Shown in pieces: positions 9,077 through 21,937 of a stretch of 64,000 bases of DNA. The stretch spans positions 186,001 to 250,000 of the forward strand of contig JAEURX010000052.1 in NCBI GenBank assembly GCA_016788885.1, given 5' to 3'. Source of the stretch: Nitrospira sp. Lineage in GTDB: Bacteria > Nitrospirota > Nitrospiria > Nitrospirales > Nitrospiraceae. The translations under genes were made by a program, and so were the position numbers. Every line of letters starts with the position of its first letter. The stretch's first letter is position 1. The notes under the pieces were generated by a model. It was not told where the DNA came from, made no database searches, and was given only the letters and a program-made list of their open reading frames with translations.

Positions 9077-9427
9077 TTACTGACTTCCACCCCTCCGCAC
9101 CTTTGCATCATTGGCCTGAAGCAGGTTTCGCTCCAACGCCGCTTTCAACAACTGCGCGGTATTGGATGCCCGGAGTTTCTTCATCATATTGGCGCGATGG
9201 GTATCGGCCGTCTTCATGCTGATCTTCAGATGCGCGGCAATACTGCGATTGGTCTGTCCTTCCCAGATCAACCGGAGAATCTCCAACTCGCGCGGCGTGA
9301 GATCGTCGGGCCTGCGCTTACTGTTGTTCGATACGGCTTCAGTGGACTCTGCCGGATCAGCTTGCGACGCCTTCATACGCGTCCGCTCTATATTGCCCGT
9401 TCCATAGTCATTCATGTCGACTAACAT
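9077..9427 (-). CDS. Stand-alone LuxR-type HTH regulator (module copy 1)
   Basis: The 116-residue protein has a variable 35-residue N-terminus with no receiver domain, then a GerE/LuxR helix-turn-helix at about 41-103 (LTPRELEILRLIWEG, then SIAAHLKISMKTADTHRANM). AGGAAGGAG precedes the ATG. It is the second gene of a two-gene operon; the first (9472-9717) ends 44 bases upstream. Its HTH is identical at 45 of 63 positions to the protein at 11213-11533, which has the same neighbour. It probably acts as a transcription factor under sigma-54 control. Confidence 0.85.
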   Translation of the reverse strand: MLVDMNDYGTGNIERTRMKASQADPAESTEAVSNNSKRRPDDLTPRELEILRLIWEGQTNRSIAAHLKISMKTADTHRANMMKKLRASNTAQLLKAALERNLLQANDAKVRRGGSQ

Positions 9428-9471
9428 ACCGCTCCTTCCTGCTCAAGCACTCCCCTCCAAGGTCAGCGCCG

Positions 9472-9717
9472 TCAGTTCTCCCGCACCGTGACGGGTTTTG
9501 AGGTATCCCATAGCCGCTGGAGATACCCTAACACCGCCGAAATCGCTTGTGTGCGTGGTTGCCAGGTCCCCTGTGCGTTGCTGTTTAATTCCACCCACCC
9601 TCCATCGACCTTCTGACGCACGATCAATCGTTCGAACATGCCATGCGTGGCCGGCTGAATCGCCAACAAATACTCCTGCTCTTCCCGATCCTTGAGCAAA
9701 AACCCTTTCACCGTCAT
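9472..9717 (-). CDS. 81-residue protein of the duplicated module, copy 1
   Basis: I do not recognise the family. The 81-residue product begins MTVKGFLL and has a beta-rich pattern (EYLLAIQPATHG, LIVRQKVDGGWVEL) followed by the helix RTQAISAVLGYLQRLW. The ATG at 9717 follows AAGGAGG. An 81-residue paralogue at 11574-11819 shares GFL, QE-L--I-P, DG-W, TW--RT-A--AVL-YLQ-L. Each is followed by a LuxR-type HTH gene and preceded by a sigma-54-like element. It may be a ligand-binding or regulatory partner of that HTH protein. Confidence 0.7.
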   Translation of the reverse strand: MTVKGFLLKDREEQEYLLAIQPATHGMFERLIVRQKVDGGWVELNSNAQGTWQPRTQAISAVLGYLQRLWDTSKPVTVREN

Positions 9718-10094
9718 CGTCACTCCTCCTTTTTGCACCCGACATGTTCGCAGAACTTCGCACTCATCCCCTGAATGGCAACTCCCGGCAACTCCTCAAG
9801 GACTTCTCCCTACACACACCACCTTCCTACATCAAGGCTTGTGCCAGACCGAAAAGTTCATAGAATCTTCAATATTCATCATCATTTGTGATCAAGAACC
9901 AGTTGATTATGTGTTTCCGTAGAGCTGTGCCACATACCCTCGCGACTGCGCCAACGACACGGCGTGAGACAATGTGAGACACATGAACGGGTATGGATGT
10001 CCGGCCTGACCAGTCATCAGGCTGACATGCGAAATCGAGCGAGGGAAGAGAGAAGGACTATAGAAACGAGACAGCGCCGGTGATCAGCAGCAGG
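9718..10094. other. Intergenic regulatory region of module copy 1
   Basis: No gene is supported here. It holds the sigma-54-like element at 9831-9846 and, about 130 bases further upstream, two direct copies of TGAGACA (GTGAGACAATGTGAGACACA at 9964-9983). A related TGTGTCACAC-CTGTCTCAT sequence precedes the second module, so these could be binding sites for the NtrC-type activator. Confidence 0.45.
9831..9846 (-). promoter_or_regulatory. Putative sigma-54 (-24/-12) promoter, module copy 1
   Basis: On the minus strand the sequence is TGGCACAAGCCTTGAT. The -24 element is a perfect TGGCAC and the spacing from GG to the -12 dinucleotide is the required 12 bases. The -12 block is TTGAT rather than TTGCT/A, so the conserved C is replaced. 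The start codon of the 81-residue protein lies about 110 bases downstream. The same sequence, including TTGAT, precedes the paralogous operon. Confidence 0.55.
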
Positions 10095-10493
10095 TTACTC
10101 AGCGCAGGCACACCCGTTTAGCGAACGCGTGGCGATATAGGTGAGATTGTTGGTGTATCGAGTAAACCCCTTCCTCCGACCGTAGAGCCGCAACAGACAT
10201 TGATCGCCCTTCAGTTGGACGAAGAAGCTGTAGTCGGCACCGGATGGCGAAGAGACACCGAAGGGACGGGGACCAAGGGAGCCGGTCGCCAACACCACCG
10301 TCGTATTCACAGCCAGGCGGTTAGCCACCTCAGGCGTCTCCCCTTCTTCGAGAAGAATGGATTCGAGTTGACCCTGCACTGTCCGGTGACACGATTCATC
10401 CGACAAGGTCGTGATCTGGGCTACCGTCGTGCAACCGGACAGGAGCACAGATCCCAACCCGATCCACTTCAGAGGCCGACTCCCCCGATTCAT
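10095..10493 (-). CDS. Lipoprotein, hypothetical
   Basis: The 132-residue product has a lipoprotein signal ending LGSVLLSGC (lipobox LSGC), so it is anchored in the envelope. The mature part has no domain I recognise; four cysteines, including a terminal CAC, could form disulfides. The ATG at 10493 is chosen over the longer frame because it begins the signal peptide and has GGAGG about 10 bases upstream. It lies between the two copies of the sigma-54 module. Confidence 0.65.
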   Translation of the reverse strand: MNRGSRPLKWIGLGSVLLSGCTTVAQITTLSDESCHRTVQGQLESILLEEGETPEVANRLAVNTTVVLATGSLGPRPFGVSSPSGADYSFFVQLKGDQCLLRLYGRRKGFTRYTNNLTYIATRSLNGCACAE

Positions 10494-10670
10494 TTTCAAT
10501 CTGCCTCCAGGGCGCCACATTGGGCTTCCGACCTCCTGCATGGGGGCGGGGGTCGAGAGGGTGCGAGACACAAGCGTTCTGCCCCCATGGAACGTTATCC
10601 TCGGAGGACTCACCACACGACCAGTGCCAGCAGCATGTCCGAGGAAGCGGAACGCAGGGCGCGGCGGCGG

Positions 10671-11099
10671 CTACCCCATCACCGGGCTGCCGTGATGATG
10701 AATCATCAGCCATTCATCGCCGATCCGCTCGAACAGATTGGTCGCAAGCACGCGGGTTTCGACCGGCTGATCGTCCTGTCGACTGGTCAGGTGCTCGGTA
10801 CAGATCACCCACCCCAGATCCCCGGCCACCTGGACCTGCACGTCGGACAGCTCAAACTTCATGGAGAAGGTGTTGTTGAAAATGAGGACCCACGAATCGC
10901 GAACGGCCGGCCAGTCGCTACGGAGGCTCCAGCCTGGATGGATGCAGGTCACATACTCGAGGTGTGCCCACACTTTGTCCATCTGGAGCATATCCAGGCT
11001 TTCAAAGGCGGCATAGAAGGCGAGATTGGCACGTGTGATTTCTTCGATACGCTGTTCGACCACGGCTCGCTCCGGCAACGGTGCGGCATTGTACTGCAA
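10671..11099 (-). CDS. NTF2/SnoaL-like protein
   Basis: The 142-residue protein fits the SnoaL-like (NTF2 fold) family. It has an N-terminal helix (FYAAFESLDMLQMDKVWAHL), then THE-type segments CIHPGW and WPAVRDSWVLIFNNT, then the beta-sheet core (WVICTEHLTS, VLATNLFERIGDEWLMIHHH). The family includes small-molecule-binding proteins and enzymes, and no substrate can be named. There is no signal peptide. It lies directly downstream of module copy 2 on the same strand, 113 bases after the HTH gene. Confidence 0.75.
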   Translation of the reverse strand: MQYNAAPLPERAVVEQRIEEITRANLAFYAAFESLDMLQMDKVWAHLEYVTCIHPGWSLRSDWPAVRDSWVLIFNNTFSMKFELSDVQVQVAGDLGWVICTEHLTSRQDDQPVETRVLATNLFERIGDEWLMIHHHGSPVMG

Positions 11100-11212
11100 A
11101 CACCGCCGCCGGTGCGAGCCTCATTTACTCGGTGAGGGGGCGGACTCGCGGGGAACCGCCGCACCGCCGAGAGTGGGACTTCTCTCGAGAGTGCAGGCCG
11201 CCGCGAGCCCCA

Positions 11213-11533
11213 TCAGCCCGCATGGGTGGCGAGCAGCCCCTCTTCGAGCGCCGTCTTCAGGAGTTGAGCGATATTGGAGACCCGAAGCTTCTTCATCATG
11301 TTGGCACGATGCGCTTCCGCCGTTTTGATGCTGATATGCAGCTGTTCGGCAATTGTTCGGTTCGTCAATCCCGCCCACACCAGCTGGAGGATCTCCTGCT
11401 CCCTTGGCGTCAGATCTTCGGGACGGCGCTTGACCACCGTGCCGTTGCTCGCCACGGCGACCGGTCCCGCTGACACCTCACGAAGATTGCCCTCTCGACT
11501 GAACCGCAAGATGTTCTCGTCGTCATTCCACAT
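11213..11533 (-). CDS. Stand-alone LuxR-type HTH regulator (module copy 2)
   Basis: The 106-residue protein lacks a receiver domain and has a GerE/LuxR helix-turn-helix at about 38-100 (LTPREQEILQLVWAG, TIAEQLHISIKTAEAHRANM). AAAGGAG precedes the ATG at 11533. It is the second gene of an operon whose first gene encodes the 81-residue paralogue, 40 bases upstream. The HTH is closely related to that of 9077-9427. Divergence outside the HTH suggests the two copies answer different signals. Confidence 0.85.
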   Translation of the reverse strand: MWNDDENILRFSREGNLREVSAGPVAVASNGTVVKRRPEDLTPREQEILQLVWAGLTNRTIAEQLHISIKTAEAHRANMMKKLRVSNIAQLLKTALEEGLLATHAG

Positions 11534-11573
11534 GATCCACGCTCCTTTATTTCTGAGCCCACACATTCAGCCG

Positions 11574-11819
11574 TTAACGAATTGGCCCGGGGAAACCCGA
11601 CGAAATCGGCGCCAGCCCTTGCAAGTAGGTCAATACCGCCCCGACCGCGCGCGTCCGGTCAGACCATGTTCTGTGGGGCAAGCGACCTATATCGATCCAA
11701 TCTCCGTCAATCTGCTCTTTGACAGCCGGTTGATCGAAGGGGCCCAACGATGAGGGTGCAATGGTGACCAATACCTCTTGATCAGAGCCGGTTGAGATCA
11801 AAAAACCTGCGACGTCCAT
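11574..11819 (-). CDS. 81-residue protein of the duplicated module, copy 2
   Basis: The product is 81 residues, the same length as its paralogue at 9472-9717, and shares the pattern GFL, QE-L--I-P, DG-W, TW--RT-A--AVL-YLQ. No known domain is recognised. The ATG at 11819 follows AAGAGGA at a normal distance; an upstream in-frame extension is rich in Gly, Asn and Lys and unlike the paralogue. It is the first gene of the second sigma-54-type operon. Confidence 0.7.
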   Translation of the reverse strand: MDVAGFLISTGSDQEVLVTIAPSSLGPFDQPAVKEQIDGDWIDIGRLPHRTWSDRTRAVGAVLTYLQGLAPISSGFPGPIR

Positions 11820-12189
11820 ACGGTCCTCTTTGCGGGGCATCTTGTTTTTGTTTCCTGAGCCAGCCCCTTGACGCTCTCCCAATTGCTGAATTCATATATC
11901 AAGGATCGTGCCATGAACATTGCCAAGAGGAGGTTGATGAAAAACTAGGGATTTACGCCGAGGCGTCATCGAGCCTCACCTATCAGGCGTCAATAGGATG
12001 GCACACGGTGCTGTGTCACACCTGTCTCATGTGGCGCAGCGCACGCTTGCCAGCTGGGCACCGAGATGCCACCGACGCAAATCTGACACGTGAACTGTTC
12101 AGCTGGGATTGGAGGAGGGTACGTGTAGGACGGGATGGGCCTGCCGGGAGGCGTCGGAGTGGAGGTTCACCGATCTCCACGAAATCAGG
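11820..12189. other. Intergenic regulatory region of module copy 2
   Basis: No gene is supported. It contains the sigma-54-like element at 11898-11913 and TGTGTCACACCTGTCTCAT at 12012-12030, which resembles the inverse of the TGAGACA repeats upstream of copy 1. The right end adjoins the 3' end of the NtrC-type regulator gene. Confidence 0.45.
11898..11913 (-). promoter_or_regulatory. Putative sigma-54 (-24/-12) promoter, module copy 2
   Basis: On the minus strand the sequence is TGGCACGATCCTTGAT: a perfect -24 TGGCACG, correct 12-base spacing, and the same TTGAT variant at -12 as copy 1. It lies about 80 bases upstream of the 81-residue protein's start. A complete sigma-54-dependent regulator is encoded immediately next door. 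Confidence 0.58.
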
Positions 12190-13584
12190 TCATGGGCGCC
12201 AATCTTGACCGGCTTCCTCCGAAGCGGCCACATCGTATTCGGCCAGGCGGCGATAGAAGGTTCGACGACTCATTCCCAGCAAGCGAGCCGCCTCGGAACG
12301 ATTGCCGCCGGTCTGTTGAAGGGCCCCCACCATGCGAGTCCGCTCATCTTCGCGCTGGAGGGGAACATAGGTCGCCTTTGGCTCCGGATGCCTGATCTCC
12401 GGTGGAAGATCCCCTACCTGCACCACCGTCCCTTTACAGTGGATGAGGGCCGATTCCACCGCACTCTTGAGTTCGCGCACATTACCCGGCCATGGATAGG
12501 CAGTGAGGACCTGCAGCGCCTCCGGGCTGACTTGGAGAACAGACTTTTCCATCACCGAGCGAAACTGCCCAAGAAAGGCATGGACCAGCAAGGGAACATC
12601 GCTGGGCCGTTCCCGCAGCGGCGCCAAACGGAGTCGAGCCACCTTGATGCGATACAGGAGATCTCGCCGGAAGGTCCCCTTCTCGACATCTTCCGCCAGG
12701 TTATGGTGCGTCGCCACCACCAGGCGCACATCGACCTTCCGCGGCTTCGATTCCCCCAAACGCGTCACTTCCCGCTCCTGAAGGACGCGCAGAAGACTTG
12801 TTTGGACGGCAGGGGAAATATCGCCGATTTCGTCCAGGAAGAGGGTCCCCCCCTGCGCCGCCTCAAAGACCCCCTCCTGGTTATCGATGGCGCCGGTGAA
12901 AGCTCCCTTCTTATGTCCAAAGAGCTGACTCCCCAAAATCGAGTCGGTAAAGCCGGCACAATTGACGGCCAAGAAGGTCTGCGAGGCGCGGCGGCTGGCG
13001 AGATGAATCGCGCGGGCCACCAATTCCTTCCCCGTGCCGGTTTCCCCTTCGATCAGGACGGTTGCATCCACCGCCGCAATCTTCTGAATCTCCTCGTACA
13101 GCACCACCATGGACGGACTTCGGCCGATTAAGTCATGGAACTTTCCATGATCCACCAACTGCGACTGGAGCGCCTGCGCCTGATCTTCTGCGGCAAACCG
13201 CCGTCGAACACTCTCGACCCATTGTTCCGCAATCGTCAGCCGCAATTTCAGGAACTCGACGCCGACAGGCTTCACAAGATAATCGTTGACGCCCGCCTGA
13301 AGCGCGGTGCGCAAGGCATCGGGCGTATCATGTGCCGTGATCATGACGATGACACAGCGATCGCCGCCAGGACTGGATCTGATAGCACGACAGAGTTGCA
13401 GCCCGTCCATACCGCCCCCACGCAACTCCCAGTCGAGCAAGACCAGCTCAAAGGCCCGTTGGCCGTAGGCCACCCAGGCCGATTCCCCATCCTCGCAGGC
13501 AGTCACCTCATGCCCGCGCGCCTCGATCACCTGTTCAAACAGCCGTCGGACGTCGATGTGATCTTCCACCAGCAATACGCGCAT
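12190..13584 (-). CDS. NtrC-family sigma-54-dependent response regulator
   Basis: The 464-residue protein has a receiver domain (about 1-118, phosphoacceptor Asp51), a AAA+ domain (about 150-380) with Walker A GETGTGKE at 180-187 and the sigma-54 contact loop GAFTGA at 227-232, and a C-terminal Fis-type helix-turn-helix (NRSEAARLLGMSRRTFYRRL). It should activate sigma-54 promoters when phosphorylated. The gene starts 18 bases after the end of the hybrid kinase gene, so the two form one operon and a likely kinase-regulator pair. The best targets seen are the -24/-12 elements at 9831 and 11898. Confidence 0.95.
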   Translation of the reverse strand: MRVLLVEDHIDVRRLFEQVIEARGHEVTACEDGESAWVAYGQRAFELVLLDWELRGGGMDGLQLCRAIRSSPGGDRCVIVMITAHDTPDALRTALQAGVNDYLVKPVGVEFLKLRLTIAEQWVESVRRRFAAEDQAQALQSQLVDHGKFHDLIGRSPSMVVLYEEIQKIAAVDATVLIEGETGTGKELVARAIHLASRRASQTFLAVNCAGFTDSILGSQLFGHKKGAFTGAIDNQEGVFEAAQGGTLFLDEIGDISPAVQTSLLRVLQEREVTRLGESKPRKVDVRLVVATHHNLAEDVEKGTFRRDLLYRIKVARLRLAPLRERPSDVPLLVHAFLGQFRSVMEKSVLQVSPEALQVLTAYPWPGNVRELKSAVESALIHCKGTVVQVGDLPPEIRHPEPKATYVPLQREDERTRMVGALQQTGGNRSEAARLLGMSRRTFYRRLAEYDVAASEEAGQDWRP

Positions 13585-13602: not shown

Positions 13603-16600
13603 TCACACATAGACGACGTGCAGGCGATCCAGATAGCGTGTGAATGCATCCAGGGTCTCACGCACCGCTGATCCATCCTTGCGATCTGCCGCCGCCTCAA
13701 GGGAGCGCCCATACGCGCTCACGACGTCGAGTCCGTACGTCGCGCCCGCGCCCTTCAACCCATGACCAATTTCACGAACCAACGCATAATCTTCCCGACT
13801 GAGGGCCTCCGCAATCTGCAGCAGATCCTGGCGTCGATGCTCCAAAAATCCAGGCATGAGCGGCTCCAGTTCTCCGCTGATCCGAAGCACCACGGGAGCC
13901 GAGGACACGCCAGGTGCCGACGGCGCGGCCGAAGCCGTCGTCTGGTAGTACAACTGAATCGCTTCCATCAGTCGCGCCTTGCGAATGGGTTTTGTGAGAT
14001 GGGCCGTGCACCCCGCCTCAAGACTGCGCTGCACTTCGCCCTGCAATGCATTGGCCGTCAGGGCCAGAATGGGAACCGGATTGCGCCCCTGCGCCCGTTC
14101 CCACGCACGGATGGCCTTGGTCGCCGCATAGCCGTCCAGAACCGGCATCTGAATATCCATCAGGACCAAATCGTATGATCCTCGCATGAACATGTCGACC
14201 GCCACCTGACCGTTGGCCGCGGTCTCGACTCGATGGGGTGTCGGCTTGAAATAGAACTCCATCATGCGACGGTTGTCCACAAAGTCTTCGGCCAACAGAA
14301 TCGACAGCCCTGCCGTTCCTCCTGCCCAATCAGGGGTATGCTGGGGGAGCGAGGGCATGGCCGAATGCCTCTCGGCCAATGCCGCCTTGCCGATCACGGC
14401 CATCATGCCATTGAACAAATCCGATCGCCGGAATGGTTTGGTGAGATACCGCACCACCCCACACTCCCGTGCCCGAGCCTGATCGCCGACCCGCCGTTCC
14501 GAGGTCAACATGATCAACGAGAGTCCTGCCAGCCCCGGTGAGCGGGCGATTGTCTCCGCAACCTCCCACCCGCTGAGTTTCGGCATGCGCACGTCGAGAA
14601 TCACCAGACGATACGGTTCGCCGGCTTTCACCGCGCGGCGCAACTCCGCCAAGGCTTCTTCACCGCCAGCTGCCTCGGCTGCAGGAATACCCCAGCCGGT
14701 CAGCGTTTCGCGCACAATCAAGCGATTCGTGGCGTTGTCATCCACGATCAAGGTGCGCAATGCCGCCAATTGCTCCCACTGAGCCGACGGAACCGCTGGG
14801 GCCGGTTGAAGATGTACGGCAAACTTGGCGCTGAAGCTGAAGGTACTCCCCTTGCCGAACTCACTCTGCACCCACAACTTCCCGCCCATCCGCTCGACCA
14901 AGCGCCGTGAGATCGTCAGCCCGAGGCCGGTCCCACTGTATGGCCGGGTCATCGACGAATCGACCTGGGTAAACCGTTCGAAAATGACGGCGAGCTTGTC
15001 CTCCGGAATTCCAATGCCGGTATCCTTCACGGTGAACAGCAGATTCCCCGGTCCCTCCGACTGCTGATCGCGTTCCACCCGCAACACGACCTCGCCCTGA
15101 TCCGTAAACTTGATGGCATTCCCCAGTAAATTGAGAAGGACCTGCCGCAATCGATTCGGGTCTCCGACCAGCGCGGTCGGAACATCGGGCTGAATCTGGT
15201 AGGCCAACTCCAGATTCTTCTCGGCCGCGCGAACGGCGACCAACTCAGCCGCGCGTTGCACCAAGTCGTTGAGATCGAAATCGACGAGATCGAGATCGAG
15301 ATGTCCGGCTTCGATCTTTGAGAGGTCCAGGACATCGTTAATCAAACTCAGGAGATTGCTTCCGGCATCTCGAAAGATCTGCACATACTCCCGCTGATCC
15401 TCGTTCAACGGCGTCTCGGACAAGAGGTCTGCCATGCCCACGATGGCGTTCATCGGGGTTCTGATTTCATGGCTCATGGTGGCGAGGAAATCGCTCTTGG
15501 CCCGATTGGCAAACTCGGCCGCCTCCTTGGCCATCACCAGGGCTTTCTCCGCTTCTTGGCGTTGCTTGGCCTCGTAGGCTAACGTCACGAGATTCCCAAT
15601 CGATGTGGCAAACTGTGTCTCCTCATTGGTCCAGGCACGCGGCACGCCGGTCCGCTCATGACACATCACGCCGGCCAGCCGGCCTCCGAAAAAAATCGGC
15701 ACGTCCAACAACGAGACAATGCCCAGTGGCTGGAGATACGCCTGCAGCAATTCGGACGTGCGCGGATCGCTCTCGACATCATGGGCGTTCACCACTTGCT
15801 CCCGAAGCAGTTCAGCGAAGTAGCGCGGGTATTGCAAGACATTCAGCCGTTGTCCGTGTGAGTGCCCCGCCGAACCCCGCTCGTACAACTCCGCACATTC
15901 AAGCATTGTCCCGCTGTGGTCCAGCAACCAGACACTGGCGCGATCCACCGCCAATGCCTGTGAGGAGGCTCGCATGAGCTCCTCAAGTGCCAACGGCCAA
16001 TCCCCTGAACCGATGTGCTGGCTTTTTGTCAGACGCATCAGCGCATGCTGATGCGCCTGCAGTACGGACTGACTGTGACGCAACGCGGCTTCCGCCTCCG
16101 TTCGCCTGGTAATGTCCAACACGAGCGTCAGCAGACAGTTCTCGTGACCGATGCGAACCGGCTCCACGTTAAAAAGCCCATGCCGCACCTCTCCGGATTT
16201 CGTTCGAAACGCCTTTTCCAGATGACGGAGAAACCCCTCTCGACGAAGGGTGTCCGCCAACTGTTGCCGGTCTTCGGGGTGTACCCAGATACCGATGTCC
16301 AACGAGGACATGCCGATCAATTCTCTGCGGCTGAATCCCGAGATCCGCACGAAAGCATCGTTCACATCGAGCACCCGGCCGTCTTCCAGCCGGCTGATGG
16401 TCATTCCGGCCGGACTGCTCTGAAACGCCTTGGAGAACCGCTCCTCACTTTCGCGCAATGCCTGCTCAACCCGTTTCCGCTCCGTGATATCGCGCGCCAC
16501 CACTTGAAAGCCGCTGACGGTTTCCCCTTCTACCAACAGTTGTGCATGCTGCCCCAGCCACACCTCGCGCCCGTCCTTCGTGACAACAGGCACCTCATAC

Positions 16601-17637
16601 ACCGTTCGCGGGACTTTCCGGACAAATTGCCGGCCATAAAATCGCTCCGCCTGCGGGCGATATTCAGGCTGGACAATGTCCAGATAGTGACGTTCCAGCA
16701 GCTCTTCAGGAAGATACCCGAGGATGCGGAGCGAGGTGGGATTGCAATAGGTAAATCGACCGGTCGCATCCGTTCGATAAATGATGTCACCGGCCTGCTC
16801 GACCAGTTCGCGATATCGCTCTTCCGTTGCCCGATGTGCAGCCTCCGCCTGGGTTCTCGCGGTGACATCGAGATGGATGCCCATCATCCGGACCATGCGG
16901 CCGTTCTCATCACACAGGCCAGACCCCAGCGAAGCAATCCAACGATACGAACCATCTTGATGCTGGAGACGATGATCCAGGCGGAACTGGTTCGCGTATT
17001 TCTCCCGAAATAGTGTCACCGTGGCCAGGGCATGCGAACGGTCATCGGGATGAATTCGACGCTCCCAGGCCTCCATTGTCGGCTCGATGTCTGACTCTGT
17101 ACAGCCTAACTGCGCCTTCCATCTCGGGGAGTAATATGCCGCCTTGGTCTCCAACTCCCATTCCCACACGCCCACGTCCGCCCCTTCCGCGGCTAGTTCG
17201 AAGCGTTGCCGGCTCTCTCGCAATGCCGCCTCAACCTGTTGCTGCTCAACCAACTGCTGGCTCAGCCGACTATTGGCGTTCATCAAACTCTGTGTCTGCT
17301 CCGCCACTCGCATCTCCAAGCTGCTATTGGCGGCACGCAATGCCGCTTCGGCATCGCGACGTCGAGACAAGAGAACCGCTCCGCTCCACATCAGCCCCAC
17401 CCCGAGCACTCGATTGAACAGCGCCGTCCTCACCTCGACACCGGCCGGCGCCAGATAAAAGCCGACCCCGAGCAGCACGGTACTCAGCGAGGCATACCAC
17501 AGTGGTGCGGCTGGGGACGCGAGGGATGAACTCAGCCAGAGGGGAAGCAGGTAGAGCGACCACGCGATGTGGCCGAGCGGAATTGCCACATCCAGCGCGA
17601 AAATTCCGATAGTCATCAAACTAATGACGGGCAGCAT
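13603..17637 (-). CDS. Membrane hybrid histidine kinase (PAS3-GAF-HK-REC2-Hpt)
   Basis: The 1344-residue sensor has three or four N-terminal membrane segments (about 1-92) and a coiled coil (95-145). Three PAS domains follow (about 145-262, 268-388, 395-515), then a GAF domain (about 540-695) and HisKA with phospho-His723 (MSHEIRTPMNAI). The HATPase (about 825-940) has KDTGIGIPED and SGTGLGLTIS. Two receivers (Asp1015 and Asp1161) precede an Hpt domain with His1292 (GHGLKGAGATYG). It should run a multi-step phosphorelay ending on the NtrC-type regulator encoded 18 bases downstream. The signal is unknown. Confidence 0.95.
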   Translation of the reverse strand: MLPVISLMTIGIFALDVAIPLGHIAWSLYLLPLWLSSSLASPAAPLWYASLSTVLLGVGFYLAPAGVEVRTALFNRVLGVGLMWSGAVLLSRRRDAEAALRAANSSLEMRVAEQTQSLMNANSRLSQQLVEQQQVEAALRESRQRFELAAEGADVGVWEWELETKAAYYSPRWKAQLGCTESDIEPTMEAWERRIHPDDRSHALATVTLFREKYANQFRLDHRLQHQDGSYRWIASLGSGLCDENGRMVRMMGIHLDVTARTQAEAAHRATEERYRELVEQAGDIIYRTDATGRFTYCNPTSLRILGYLPEELLERHYLDIVQPEYRPQAERFYGRQFVRKVPRTVYEVPVVTKDGREVWLGQHAQLLVEGETVSGFQVVARDITERKRVEQALRESEERFSKAFQSSPAGMTISRLEDGRVLDVNDAFVRISGFSRRELIGMSSLDIGIWVHPEDRQQLADTLRREGFLRHLEKAFRTKSGEVRHGLFNVEPVRIGHENCLLTLVLDITRRTEAEAALRHSQSVLQAHQHALMRLTKSQHIGSGDWPLALEELMRASSQALAVDRASVWLLDHSGTMLECAELYERGSAGHSHGQRLNVLQYPRYFAELLREQVVNAHDVESDPRTSELLQAYLQPLGIVSLLDVPIFFGGRLAGVMCHERTGVPRAWTNEETQFATSIGNLVTLAYEAKQRQEAEKALVMAKEAAEFANRAKSDFLATMSHEIRTPMNAIVGMADLLSETPLNEDQREYVQIFRDAGSNLLSLINDVLDLSKIEAGHLDLDLVDFDLNDLVQRAAELVAVRAAEKNLELAYQIQPDVPTALVGDPNRLRQVLLNLLGNAIKFTDQGEVVLRVERDQQSEGPGNLLFTVKDTGIGIPEDKLAVIFERFTQVDSSMTRPYSGTGLGLTISRRLVERMGGKLWVQSEFGKGSTFSFSAKFAVHLQPAPAVPSAQWEQLAALRTLIVDDNATNRLIVRETLTGWGIPAAEAAGGEEALAELRRAVKAGEPYRLVILDVRMPKLSGWEVAETIARSPGLAGLSLIMLTSERRVGDQARARECGVVRYLTKPFRRSDLFNGMMAVIGKAALAERHSAMPSLPQHTPDWAGGTAGLSILLAEDFVDNRRMMEFYFKPTPHRVETAANGQVAVDMFMRGSYDLVLMDIQMPVLDGYAATKAIRAWERAQGRNPVPILALTANALQGEVQRSLEAGCTAHLTKPIRKARLMEAIQLYYQTTASAAPSAPGVSSAPVVLRISGELEPLMPGFLEHRRQDLLQIAEALSREDYALVREIGHGLKGAGATYGLDVVSAYGRSLEAAADRKDGSAVRETLDAFTRYLDRLHVVYV

Positions 17638-19556: not shown

Positions 19557-20210
19557 TTACTTATCAGTCCCCACCAGCCCGGTTCGAATGGCCAGCCGCA
19601 CCAATCCGGGAATGTCATGAATATCCAACCGCTCCATTAATTGGGCTCGATGCGTCTCCACGGTTTTGACACTCAGATCGAGCCGGTGCGCAATCTGCTT
19701 TGTCGAGCTGCCTTCGGCGATCAACTGGAGAATTTCCCGTTGGCGTCCCGTGAGTTTCCCCAATGGCCCTGCAGCGGCAGCACCCTGACGACAATAGACA
19801 TCCAACGTGAATTTCGCCATGGCTGAGGTGAGGTAGGTTTCCCCCCGACACACCGCTTTGAGGGCAAGTTCCAATTCCGACCGGTCGGCGTCTTTCAAGA
19901 GATAGCCCGATGCACCAGCGCGTAACGCCTCCTTGAGATACTCTTCGTTTGTGTACATCGTGAGCATGATGACTTTGGCATTCGGGCACTCCTGGCACAT
20001 ACGACTCGTGGCCTCCAGCCCATTCATCCCTGACATCGCAATATCCATCAACACGACGTCGGGCTTCAGTTCTTTGGAAACCCGCACCGCCTCTCGGCCA
20101 TCGCTGACTTCCCCAATCACCGCGACCTCGTCCATCTTCTCCAGCAAGGCCCGAAACCCGGCACGCACCAATGTGTGATCCTCCGCGAGCAACACCCTGA
20201 TCTTGTTCAT
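19557..20210 (-). CDS. NarL/FixJ-family response regulator
   Basis: The 217-residue protein has a receiver domain (LLAEDHTLVRAGFRALLE, phosphoacceptor in DVVLMDIAM, Lys in GYLLKDAD) and a LuxR/GerE helix-turn-helix (LTGRQREILQLIAEG, QIAHRLDLSVKTVETHRA). It overlaps the end of the upstream kinase gene by 4 bases (translational coupling), so the two are a cognate pair. It should bind DNA as a phosphorylated dimer; its targets are unknown. Confidence 0.93.
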   Translation of the reverse strand: MNKIRVLLAEDHTLVRAGFRALLEKMDEVAVIGEVSDGREAVRVSKELKPDVVLMDIAMSGMNGLEATSRMCQECPNAKVIMLTMYTNEEYLKEALRAGASGYLLKDADRSELELALKAVCRGETYLTSAMAKFTLDVYCRQGAAAAGPLGKLTGRQREILQLIAEGSSTKQIAHRLDLSVKTVETHRAQLMERLDIHDIPGLVRLAIRTGLVGTDK

Positions 20211-21784
20211 GGCAGAACCTCCCGACTGCCCCCGGGAATACTGATGACAGGAAACGAAGCACGAATTTCCGTCCCCTCTCCCGGGGCAGACGTGATCGTG
20301 ACTGTTCCGCCGGCAAGTTGAACCCGTTCCTCCATCCCCGACAAACCCACACTGGTGCCGGCTCTGGATCCCGCGCGAACCGTCTCCGGGTCAAAGCCGA
20401 TTCCATTGTCCCGAATGACGAGGTTCAATTCCTGGGGGAACCGCTCCAGCCGCACCTCTACCTTGTTCGCTTGCGCGTGGCGAGCCACATTGGTCAAGGC
20501 CTCCTGCGTCAGCCGAAAACAGGCGATCTCAATCTCCGGCGAAGGCCGGCTCGCCAGAGTTTCAGCCGAGACCAATGCTTCCCACCCCGCACGCTCCGCC
20601 TGGCGACCGACATACCATCGGAGCGCCGGCCCCAATCCCAGTTCGTCCAATAGTGAGGGGCGTAAATCCAAGGCCAAATTGCGGACACGTTGCAGTACCT
20701 GCCCGAGAATCTCCAGACTATCTACGATCTGATTCTCTACGGCCTCGCTGTTAGGTCCCGTACGAAGCTCTCGCAGATTGAGCTTGATCGCAGTCAACGC
20801 CTGCCCGATCTCATCGTGCAAATCACGGGCAATCGCACGACGCTCTGATTCTTGAATTTCCATCAGGCGACGGGACAAGATGCGTAACCGTTCGTTAGCC
20901 TCGCGTAACGCAGCCGTGCGTTCCAGCACCCGCACCTCCAGCTCCTCATGCGCAGTCCGCAACGCCTCCTGCGTCCGCTTCTGTTCGGTAATATCGGTAT
21001 TCAATTCGAGACTTCCGCTCGGAGTCCCCGAGGAATCACGCAGCAACGTCCACCGGCTTGCCACCGTAATGATCCGTCCCGCACGAGTTTTATGCACCAA
21101 TTCTCCCCGCCAGAATCCCTCACGCAGAAACTCCCGCTTAATCTCTTCCAGGGGACGCGGAAACGTCGTGCTCAAAAACTCATGAATATAGGCTCCCACC
21201 GCTTCCTCAGGTGTCCATCCGTACAGTCGCATCGCACCGTCATTCCAATAGGTAATCGTGTCACTCACCAAGTCTCGAACCAGGATGGCATCATTGGCCA
21301 GATCGAGCAATTTTGCCTGTCGGCGAAGCAACGCCTCCGCCTGCAACTGCTCACGACGGTCCTTGATCACAAAGCAATAGCCGACGATACGTCCACGCTC
21401 ATCAGGAAGGGCACTCACGAAGAGGCGCACAGGAATCCGGCATCCACTGCCATCGATATAGGTCCACTCCTCCTCGGCCATCTGTCCGAAGTTGACCAAT
21501 GCGACAATCACATCAAAAGGTTTTTCGAGCATCTTTCCAATCTGAGCCGCAAGCGCAGATCGTCGAGCCTCCAGTTCGACGGGATCATGAAATGTAGCCG
21601 GGGTGACGCGACCGACGACCGTCCCCGCAGTCACACCGAGCAAACGCTCGGCAGCGGGGCTGAAACTCGTGATGGTCCCATCCGGTCTGGTGGAGATCAC
21701 CGCAACCCTGCTCAACCCACCGTCGCCGAATTCGGCCGTACCTCCACCCATGCCTGGTCCCTCTGTTTGGGAGATCACGCTCAT
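20207..21784 (-). CDS. PAS-containing NarX-type histidine kinase
   Basis: The product, 525 residues from the ATG at 21784, is predicted cytosolic with no membrane segment. Two PAS domains (about 25-145 and 155-270) are followed by a coiled coil and a HisKA_3 dimerisation domain with the phospho-His in ARDLHDEIGQAL (near residue 323). The HATPase domain has RDNGIGFDP and GLSGMEERVQLAGG. This subfamily pairs with NarL-type regulators, and such a gene overlaps its 3' end by 4 bases. A GTG two codons upstream is an alternative start. Confidence 0.92.
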   Translation of the reverse strand: MSVISQTEGPGMGGGTAEFGDGGLSRVAVISTRPDGTITSFSPAAERLLGVTAGTVVGRVTPATFHDPVELEARRSALAAQIGKMLEKPFDVIVALVNFGQMAEEEWTYIDGSGCRIPVRLFVSALPDERGRIVGYCFVIKDRREQLQAEALLRRQAKLLDLANDAILVRDLVSDTITYWNDGAMRLYGWTPEEAVGAYIHEFLSTTFPRPLEEIKREFLREGFWRGELVHKTRAGRIITVASRWTLLRDSSGTPSGSLELNTDITEQKRTQEALRTAHEELEVRVLERTAALREANERLRILSRRLMEIQESERRAIARDLHDEIGQALTAIKLNLRELRTGPNSEAVENQIVDSLEILGQVLQRVRNLALDLRPSLLDELGLGPALRWYVGRQAERAGWEALVSAETLASRPSPEIEIACFRLTQEALTNVARHAQANKVEVRLERFPQELNLVIRDNGIGFDPETVRAGSRAGTSVGLSGMEERVQLAGGTVTITSAPGEGTEIRASFPVISIPGGSREVLP

Positions 21785-21937
21785 CGACACAATCGTTGCC
21801 CCACGCCGAAGATAGCCTCACGCTTCAAACAGGTTCATACCATCTTTTCTTCTCACGGAGAATTTGCGCGACGACAGGTCGGAACGACACCCGAACTCTG
21901 GGTGTTCGCGAGACACATCACGCATTCGGAAGCAGGC

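What the first reader, a model, noticed from the sequence alone, without database searches (positions are those of the whole stretch)
9077..13584. Duplicated small-protein + LuxR-HTH operons under a neighbouring sigma-54 system
Two operons at 9077-9717 and 11213-11819 each encode an 81-residue protein of unknown family and a LuxR-type HTH without receiver. Each is preceded by TGGCAC-N5-CCTTGAT-like -24/-12 elements at equal spacing on the minus strand. The NtrC-type activator and its hybrid kinase adjoin them. The shared odd TTGAT at -12 in both copies, and related TGAGACA/TGTCTCA sequences further upstream, suggest a common control. A cascade from a multi-sensor kinase to two paralogous secondary regulators is not something I know described.
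Basis: partly seen in the sequence, partly recalled or inferred. Interest (0 to 1): 0.78.

Follow-up and report, generated by a model that had tools for sequence, protein, structure and literature searches.

The report
Conserved sigma-54 switch for small regulators
In nitrite-oxidising Nitrospira bacteria, two neighbouring mini-operons, each coding for a tiny protein of unknown kind and a bare DNA-binding protein, carry the same conserved sigma-54 switch and lie beside a matching sigma-54 activator, so they look like the second layer of a signalling cascade.

Summary
Two paralogous operons (an 81-aa protein plus a receiver-less LuxR/FixJ-type HTH) follow a hybrid kinase and an NtrC-type response regulator. 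In both alignments it is the best-conserved 16-mer upstream, followed by TGTCTCA/TGTGnCACA half-sites. The small protein has no Pfam or NCBIfam match and was found in six genera of one family. It is not an obligatory partner of the HTH: small protein B is broken or missing in 7 of 26 genomes while HTH-B stays almost invariant. Beyond the finding, a second sigma-54 activator (PAS-type, about 63% identical) is followed by a third bare HTH with the same promoter class. In other genera that class precedes the 81-aa homologue or a NarL-type regulator. C is absent at -12 in all promoters of this class seen, although each of 15 genomes has one RpoN. Two genomes keep promoter and HTH with the adjacent regulator lost or broken. 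Such cascades are known in kind (AprX to XrpA); signal and targets are unknown.

The parts
13603..17637 (-). Hybrid histidine kinase (PAS x3, GAF, HisKA, HATPase, two receivers, HPt; N-terminus hydrophobic by eye)
   Evidence: Pfam; next to the activator in relatives
12190..13584 (-). NtrC-type response regulator (receiver, AAA+ sigma-54 activator domain with GAFTGA, Fis HTH)
   Evidence: Pfam; GAFTGA read in the translation; orthologues
11999..12029 (-). Upstream half-sites of operon B (TGAGACA, TGTGACACA, TGTGCCA read on the minus strand): presumed activator-binding region
11898..11913 (-). -24/-12 element of operon B, TGGCACGATCCTTGAT
   Evidence: 26 of 26 testable copies; best-conserved 16-mer upstream, mean identity 0.974 versus 0.482 in flanks
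11574..11819 (-). Small protein B (81 aa), paralogue of small protein A; broken or missing in 7 of 26 genomes
11213..11566 (-). HTH-B, receiver-less LuxR/FixJ-type DNA-binding protein (117 aa)
   Evidence: GerE 1.1e-19; DNA-binding domain identical in 16 of 30 B-type rows
10671..11099 (-). SnoaL-like protein downstream of HTH-B, possibly co-transcribed
   Evidence: SnoaL_3 1.8e-28; found in all 27 genus g1/g15 loci mapped
10095..10616 (-). 173-aa protein of unknown family, usually between the two operons
   Evidence: no Pfam match; synteny, (several kb away in L066, L067, L069; not found in L070)
9926..9981 (-). Upstream half-sites of operon A (TGTCTCA twice, TGTGGCACA on the minus strand)
9831..9846 (-). 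-24/-12 element of operon A, TGGCACAAGCCTTGAT
   Evidence: 24 of 25 testable copies; best-conserved 16-mer upstream, 0.841 versus 0.462 in flanks
9472..9717 (-). Small protein A (81 aa), predicted beta4-alpha
   Evidence: 86-95% identical where present in genus g1; model pLDDT 78
9077..9427 (-). HTH-A, receiver-less LuxR/FixJ-type DNA-binding protein (116 aa; a start at 9415 is also possible)
   Evidence: GerE 8.7e-19

Best explanation
This is a two-tier transcription cascade. A hybrid kinase, probably membrane-anchored, passes phosphate to the adjacent NtrC-type activator (inferred from domains and adjacency). The activator binds TGTCTCA/TGTGnCACA half-sites about 80-136 bp upstream of two -24/-12 promoters and opens RNA polymerase carrying the single sigma-54 (promoters supported by comparative footprint; the binding partner is inferred). 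Each promoter makes a small, predicted beta4-alpha protein and a bare FixJ/NarL-type HTH. Having no receiver, the HTH probably acts simply through its amount, so the sigma-54 switch is its on/off control (inferred). A paralogous PAS-type activator, in a cluster that looks concerned with the cell envelope or osmotic stress (OmpA-like proteins, Ras-like GTPase, MscL), is followed by a third bare HTH with the same promoter class and may share the binding motif. The small protein is an accessory factor, not an essential partner of the HTH. Likelihoods: sigma-54 promoters 0.93; the adjacent response regulator is a main activator 0.70 (lowered from 0.75 after one search showed a second genome with that regulator broken); HTH activity set by expression level 0.7.
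For: Kinase, activator, small-B, HTH-B, SnoaL, 173-aa, small-A, HTH-A (small-B whole or as remnant) stand in this order in 19 of 27 genus g1/g15 loci mapped (my count; the other 8 are cut by contig or fetch ends, rearranged, or lack parts). The -24/-12 element was searched in 900 bp upstream of every HTH without constraining the -12 base: 26 of 26 (B) and 24 of 25 (A). In both alignments it is the best-conserved 16-mer upstream. Half-sites are enriched (0 of 2000 shuffles) and conserved. Outside g1/g15 the same promoter class, with contiguous TGTCTCA-TGAGACA dyads in several, precedes the small-protein homologue or a NarL-small pair in 14 of 18 loci examined. HTH-C behind the PAS-type activator has it in the 7 genomes looked at. 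One RpoN per genome in 15 of 15.
Against: No expression, transcription-start or binding data. G043 has lost kinase and regulator but keeps both promoters and HTHs. G098 has a regulator lacking residues 57-207, a broken small protein B and no PAS-type activator at the cut-off used, yet keeps promoter B and HTH-B. The -12 GC of the consensus is GA or GT in all these promoters, so sigma-54 affinity is not guaranteed. The A-position HTH of L068 has no element. Four of 18 small-protein loci outside g1/g15 have no such site in front (L074, L118, L123, L124). The regulon pattern searches found only one of the three promoters of the window's own genome, so they say little about total reach. Targets of the HTHs are unknown.
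Confidence: 0.76

Rival explanations
1. The promoters are sigma-54 promoters, but the physiological activator is the PAS-type paralogue (or both activators jointly), and the adjacent kinase/response-regulator pair is a later, dispensable input.
For: G043 keeps promoters A and B without the kinase or response regulator but has the PAS-type activator. Similar half-sites lie upstream of HTH-C behind the PAS-type activator. In genus g6 locus L073 the PAS-type activator sits next to the small-protein homologue.
Against: In 9 of the 11 genomes an intact response-regulator orthologue and the small protein are both present (6) or both absent (3); the exceptions are G043 and G098. G098 keeps promoter B and HTH-B although no PAS-type activator was found at the cut-off used. 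Response regulator and operon B are neighbours in most loci.
Confidence: 0.3
2. The small protein is the functional output (for example an envelope or stress protein) and the HTH is an autoregulator of its own operon.
For: The small-protein family recurs behind this promoter class in other genera, often without the bare HTH. Small protein A is 86-95% identical where present in the genus.
Against: In operon B the small protein is broken or missing in 7 of 26 genomes while the HTH-B DNA-binding domain is nearly invariant. HTH-C has no small protein in front in the loci read.
Confidence: 0.2
3. The -24/-12 matches are coincidental and the operons use ordinary sigma-70 promoters.
For: The -12 base differs from the usual consensus in every copy; in the whole genome the strict pattern has 11 matches against 6 for its reversed control.
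Against: Conservation in 50 of 51 testable copies with about 0.03 expected per 900 bp (my arithmetic, even base composition), best-conserved 16-mer upstream, recurrence in other genera beside sigma-54 activators.
Confidence: 0.03

Closest known systems
AprX/RpoN3 to XrpA module of Cereibacter sphaeroides (PMC11999139; abstract and sections 21 and 23 read)
   Same: A receiver-AAA-HTH sigma-54 activator is required for the gene of a second-tier HTH regulator that has a sigma-54 promoter; promoter and activator co-occur across species, with one species keeping the promoter without the activator, as G043 does here.
   Different: XrpA is an XRE-family repressor, possibly monocistronic, in a genome with four RpoN paralogues. 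Here there are three LuxR/FixJ-type HTHs, two paralogous activators, an 81-aa partner and one RpoN.
sigma-54 regulators near nxrAB of Nitrospira (passages of PMC6606698 read)
   Same: Nitrospira has several sigma-54 activators, some beside the genes they are thought to control.
   Different: Those adjoin nitrite oxidoreductase genes; the passages read do not describe this locus, the 81-aa protein or bare HTHs under sigma-54.
FixJ/NarL-family response regulators (family knowledge, recalled)
   Same: Same GerE DNA-binding domain.
   Different: No receiver domain; presumably not controlled by phosphorylation.

Membership tests
sigma-54 (-24/-12) promoter | GG and GC dinucleotides ten bases apart within TGGCAC-N5-TTGCW (consensus recalled) | tested here: inconclusive
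   GG, spacing and TTG met in 50 of 51 testable copies; the C of GC is A in all 50, A or T in the other genera
sigma-54 (-24/-12) promoter | An RpoN gene in the genome | tested here: met
   one match to Sigma54_DBD in each of 15 of 15 genomes
sigma-54 (-24/-12) promoter | Expression depends on RpoN and an activator ATPase | not testable with these tools
   no expression data
NtrC-type response regulator | Receiver, AAA+ domain with GAFTGA, Fis HTH | tested here: met
   Pfam domains; GAFTGA in translation
LuxR/FixJ-type regulator | GerE HTH domain above curated cut-off | tested here: met
   67.4 and 70.2 bits against a cut-off of 23.5
LuxR/FixJ-type response regulator (two-component) | N-terminal receiver | tested here: not met
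   no receiver match in either protein
Any described family for the 81-aa protein | Match in Pfam or NCBIfam, or a clear structural match | tested here: inconclusive
   no Pfam/NCBIfam match for either window protein; 3 Pfam families with one weak member hit each among 29 relatives; PDB sequence search best E 0.091; Foldseek best E 1.0, VIA best Z 4.9; model pLDDT 78 from 25 sequences
Two-tier sigma-54 activator to HTH-regulator module (AprX-XrpA kind) | Activator gene co-occurs with a sigma-54 promoter in front of a regulator gene | tested here: met
   with exceptions G043 and G098
Two-tier sigma-54 activator to HTH-regulator module (AprX-XrpA kind) | Genetic dependence of the regulator gene on activator and RpoN | not testable with these tools
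   no mutants

The most novel reading that the evidence does not exclude
These promoters form their own class within the sigma-54 promoters of Nitrospiraceae. The -12 base is never C, although canonical TTGCT sites coexist in the same genome and would be read by the same single sigma-54. The altered -12 tunes the promoters to two sister activators that have almost no targets except bare HTH regulators, and the 81-aa proteins modulate that relay.
Probability: 0.2. Interest if true: 0.6.

Novelty: new variant of a known kind. Interest (0 to 1): 0.45.

Why it matters
Nitrospira are widespread nitrite oxidisers, and little is known of their gene regulation. This gives a precise, testable regulatory module: activators, promoter coordinates, binding motif and outputs, conserved across a genus with homologous forms in sister genera. 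It also gives a family of small proteins with no described relatives in the libraries searched, and a conserved departure at the -12 base of sigma-54 promoters that could show what that base does.

Tried and rejected
A second sigma-54 factor reading the odd -12 element: rejected, one RpoN per genome in 15 of 15. TTGAT as a general habit of this genome's sigma-54 promoters: not supported. Of 11 matches to TGGCAC-N5-TTG[AC][AT] (6 for the reversed control, so several must be chance), 7 are TTGCT. The two TTGAT matches outside the finding lie in coding sequence: L035 in an SDR-like frame on the other strand, L042 in an FKBP-like frame (my reading). A wider regulon: half-site plus promoter patterns in eight genomes gave, apart from this promoter class, 9 places, each under a stop-free frame of at least 147 codons. 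That criterion is rough (HTH-C's own promoter in G064 also lies under a 155-codon frame on the other strand), and the patterns found only B of the three promoters of the window's own genome. The small protein as obligatory partner of the HTH: rejected. A known fold for the small protein: Foldseek E >= 1 and VIA Z <= 4.9; PUR-repeat, polo-box and carbohydrate-binding-module chains are among the weak rows, none standing out, which neither shows nor excludes kinship. A Clostridium hit (L060) was dropped as too weak and not examined. A conserved stretch between half-sites and -24 (about -48 to -25) was not resolved. Literature: searches (4 papers; 169, of which 15 listed; none; 18, of which 12 listed; 5) listed no paper that I recognised as describing this locus; apart from the passages, abstract and sections named, I saw only titles and starts of abstracts.
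Full report
What is there. The window lies in a 3.92-Mb genome (G000:C52:186001-250000) whose close relatives are Nitrospira, including Candidatus Nitrospira defluvii (L055). On the minus strand, in order of transcription, are a hybrid kinase (13603-17637), an NtrC-type response regulator (12190-13584), small protein B plus HTH-B (11819-11213), a SnoaL-like protein, a 173-aa protein, and small protein A plus HTH-A (9717-9077). The two small proteins are 36-39% identical to each other and have no Pfam or NCBIfam match. The HTH proteins have a GerE domain and no receiver. This order, counting whole or remnant small-B, is found in 19 of 27 genus g1/g15 loci (my count).

The promoters. For 27 genomes (26 of genus g1 with the window, plus G014 of genus g15) I took 900 bp upstream of each HTH domain and searched NGGCAY-N5-TTGNN, leaving the -12 base free. 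Operon B: 26 of 26 testable (L049 is cut by its contig end), all TTGAT. Operon A or its positional equivalent: 24 of 25 (20 TTGAT, 3 TTGAG, 1 TTGAA); the exception is L068, whose A-position HTH also has no small protein. L067 and L070 gave no A-position HTH in the DNA fetched. So C was absent at -12 in all 50 elements. Three upstream stretches (L051, L054, L056) hold one further match each, about 870-895 bases out, with TTGGG. In alignments (A without L068) the 16-mer is the best-conserved of the upstream region: identity to the window 0.974 against 0.482 in flanks (B, 26 rows) and 0.841 against 0.462 (A, 24 rows). Other conserved blocks are the TGTCTCA/TGTGnCACA half-sites at about -136 to -80 relative to the TGG, a block at about -48 to -25 in B, and a stretch downstream of the promoter (+32 to +55) in A. 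In the window the half-site counts exceed all of 2000 dinucleotide shuffles for each operon., which anchored on the small protein, missed a few of these promoters because of broken frames or a C in place of the first T; one search replaces them.

The odd -12 base. In the window's own genome the strict pattern TGGCAC-N5-TTG[AC][AT] has 11 matches, and its reversed control 6, so several are chance. Seven are TTGCT, some shortly upstream of plausible genes (for example UspA-like and LpxC-like; names are my reading of the translations). Four are TTGAT: the two promoters here and two in coding sequence. HTH-C's promoter (below) has A before GGCAC and so escapes that pattern. Each of 15 genomes tested has a single RpoN, so a second sigma factor does not explain it.

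Distribution of the small protein. By sequence, 32 of 147 genomes of the family match, including 26 of the 29 of genus g1 (the 26/29 count is mine from the listing). With a profile, 49 of 395 sampled genomes of the phylum match, all in one family and five genera; G014 adds a sixth. Some matches are weak (G033 of genus g2, E 1.2e-4). Small protein B is broken or missing in L047, L052, L058, L062, L063, L066 and L070 (7 of the 26 with the region, read by eye from three-frame translations; L062 and L063 show frame breaks that could in part be assembly errors). The HTH-B domain is identical in 16 of 30 B-type rows (rows include A-position copies of L066, L068, L069) and close in most others. Hence the small protein is not needed for whatever keeps HTH-B constant. 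In L068 and L069 the A-position HTH has no small protein found.

A larger circuit. Searching the response regulator in 11 genomes showed a paralogue 59-67% identical over the AAA and HTH parts in G000, G030, G043, G061, G064, G075, G014 and, in part, G110; none at that level in G018, G101 or G098. In G000 it is a PAS-type activator at G000:C37 within OmpA-like, Ras-like GTPase, PAS-activator, bare HTH-C, outer-membrane protein, MscL and OmpA-like genes (names are from reading the translations, not from a family search). HTH-C carries half-sites and NGGCAY-N5-TTG[AT] in the 7 genomes examined (G000, G014, G030, G043, G061, G064, G075). In genus g6 locus L073 the same gene order holds, but the slot of HTH-C is filled by the small-protein homologue, a zinc-ribbon protein and a NarL-type regulator (parts of it in L115, L119, L075), behind the same promoter class with TTGTA/TTGTT at -12. 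Of 18 small-protein loci fetched outside g1/g15, 12 have the element directly in front of the small protein (L071-L073, L075, L114-L117, L119-L122), 2 in front of a NarL-type gene that precedes it (L125, L126), and 4 have none in front (L074, a doubtful homologue; L118; L123, which has a TTGCT match after the small protein; L124). In L124 the homologue precedes SnoaL and a 173-aa-like gene as in the window, without an HTH. So a sigma-54 activator beside this promoter class, feeding a small protein and/or a LuxR/NarL-type regulator, recurs across genera.

Reach of the activators. Patterns of a half-site 75-105 or 80-110 bases before GGCAY-N5-TTG in eight genomes hit this promoter class and 9 other places, each under a stop-free frame of at least 147 codons; reversed controls were zero in all eight. 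This hints at few direct targets, but the patterns need exact half-sites in a set range: in the window's own genome they found promoter B and missed A and C.

Which activator. In one search an intact response-regulator orthologue and the small protein are both present in G000, G030, G061, G064, G075 and G014, and both absent in G018, G101 and G110 (the last 66% complete). Two genomes break the rule. G043 lacks kinase and regulator but keeps both promoters, HTH-A, HTH-B, small A, the PAS-type activator and HTH-C. G098 has a regulator matching only residues 1-56 and 208-457 and a broken small-B, and no PAS-type activator at the cut-off used, yet keeps promoter B and HTH-B. The first resembles the Phaeovulum case for AprX/XrpA. 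Both leave open another activator, or recent loss. After I lowered the likelihood that the adjacent regulator is a main activator from 0.75 to 0.70.

Comparison with what is known. A sigma-54 activator needed for a second-tier HTH gene is described: AprX and RpoN3 for xrpA in Cereibacter sphaeroides (PMC11999139, abstract and sections 21 and 23). Nitrospira sigma-54 regulators near nxrAB are mentioned in PMC6606698 (passages). Five literature searches (lists capped in 42 and 57) showed no paper that I recognised as describing this locus. I therefore call it a new variant of a known kind: three LuxR-type outputs, two sister activators, a small-protein family absent from the libraries searched and a consistent non-C at -12.

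The small protein. A model from 25 window and locus sequences is beta-beta-beta-beta-alpha with mean pLDDT 78. No solved structure stands out. I propose an accessory role (binding the HTH or activator, or a stress protein), with low confidence.

Noticed in passing
G000:C37:68000-83000 (L108), also L073: A cluster of OmpA-like proteins, a Ras-like GTPase, a PAS-type sigma-54 activator, a bare HTH or NarL regulator, an outer-membrane protein and MscL, in similar order in two genera; looks like an envelope or osmotic-stress locus.
   Followed up: partly
L047, L052, L058, L062, L063, L066, L070: Small protein B is broken or missing while the downstream HTH-B stays intact: gene erosion inside an otherwise constrained operon.
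   Followed up: partly
window 11914-12050, about -48 to -25 from the TGG of promoter B: A further conserved stretch between half-sites and -24 (GCGTAAATCCCTAGTTTTTC in the window); candidate bend-protein or self-binding site.
   Followed up: no
window 10095-11099: SnoaL-like protein and 173-aa protein are usually near these operons; in L124 (genus g2) they directly follow a small-protein homologue without any HTH.
   Followed up: partly
window 19557-21790: A second kinase and NarL-type response regulator pair close by; also next to the kinase in L047, L058 and L062.
   Followed up: no
G043 (L052, L110, L127) and G098 (L070): Kinase and response regulator lost (G043) or regulator with an internal gap (G098) although the downstream promoter and HTH-B remain.
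   Followed up: partly
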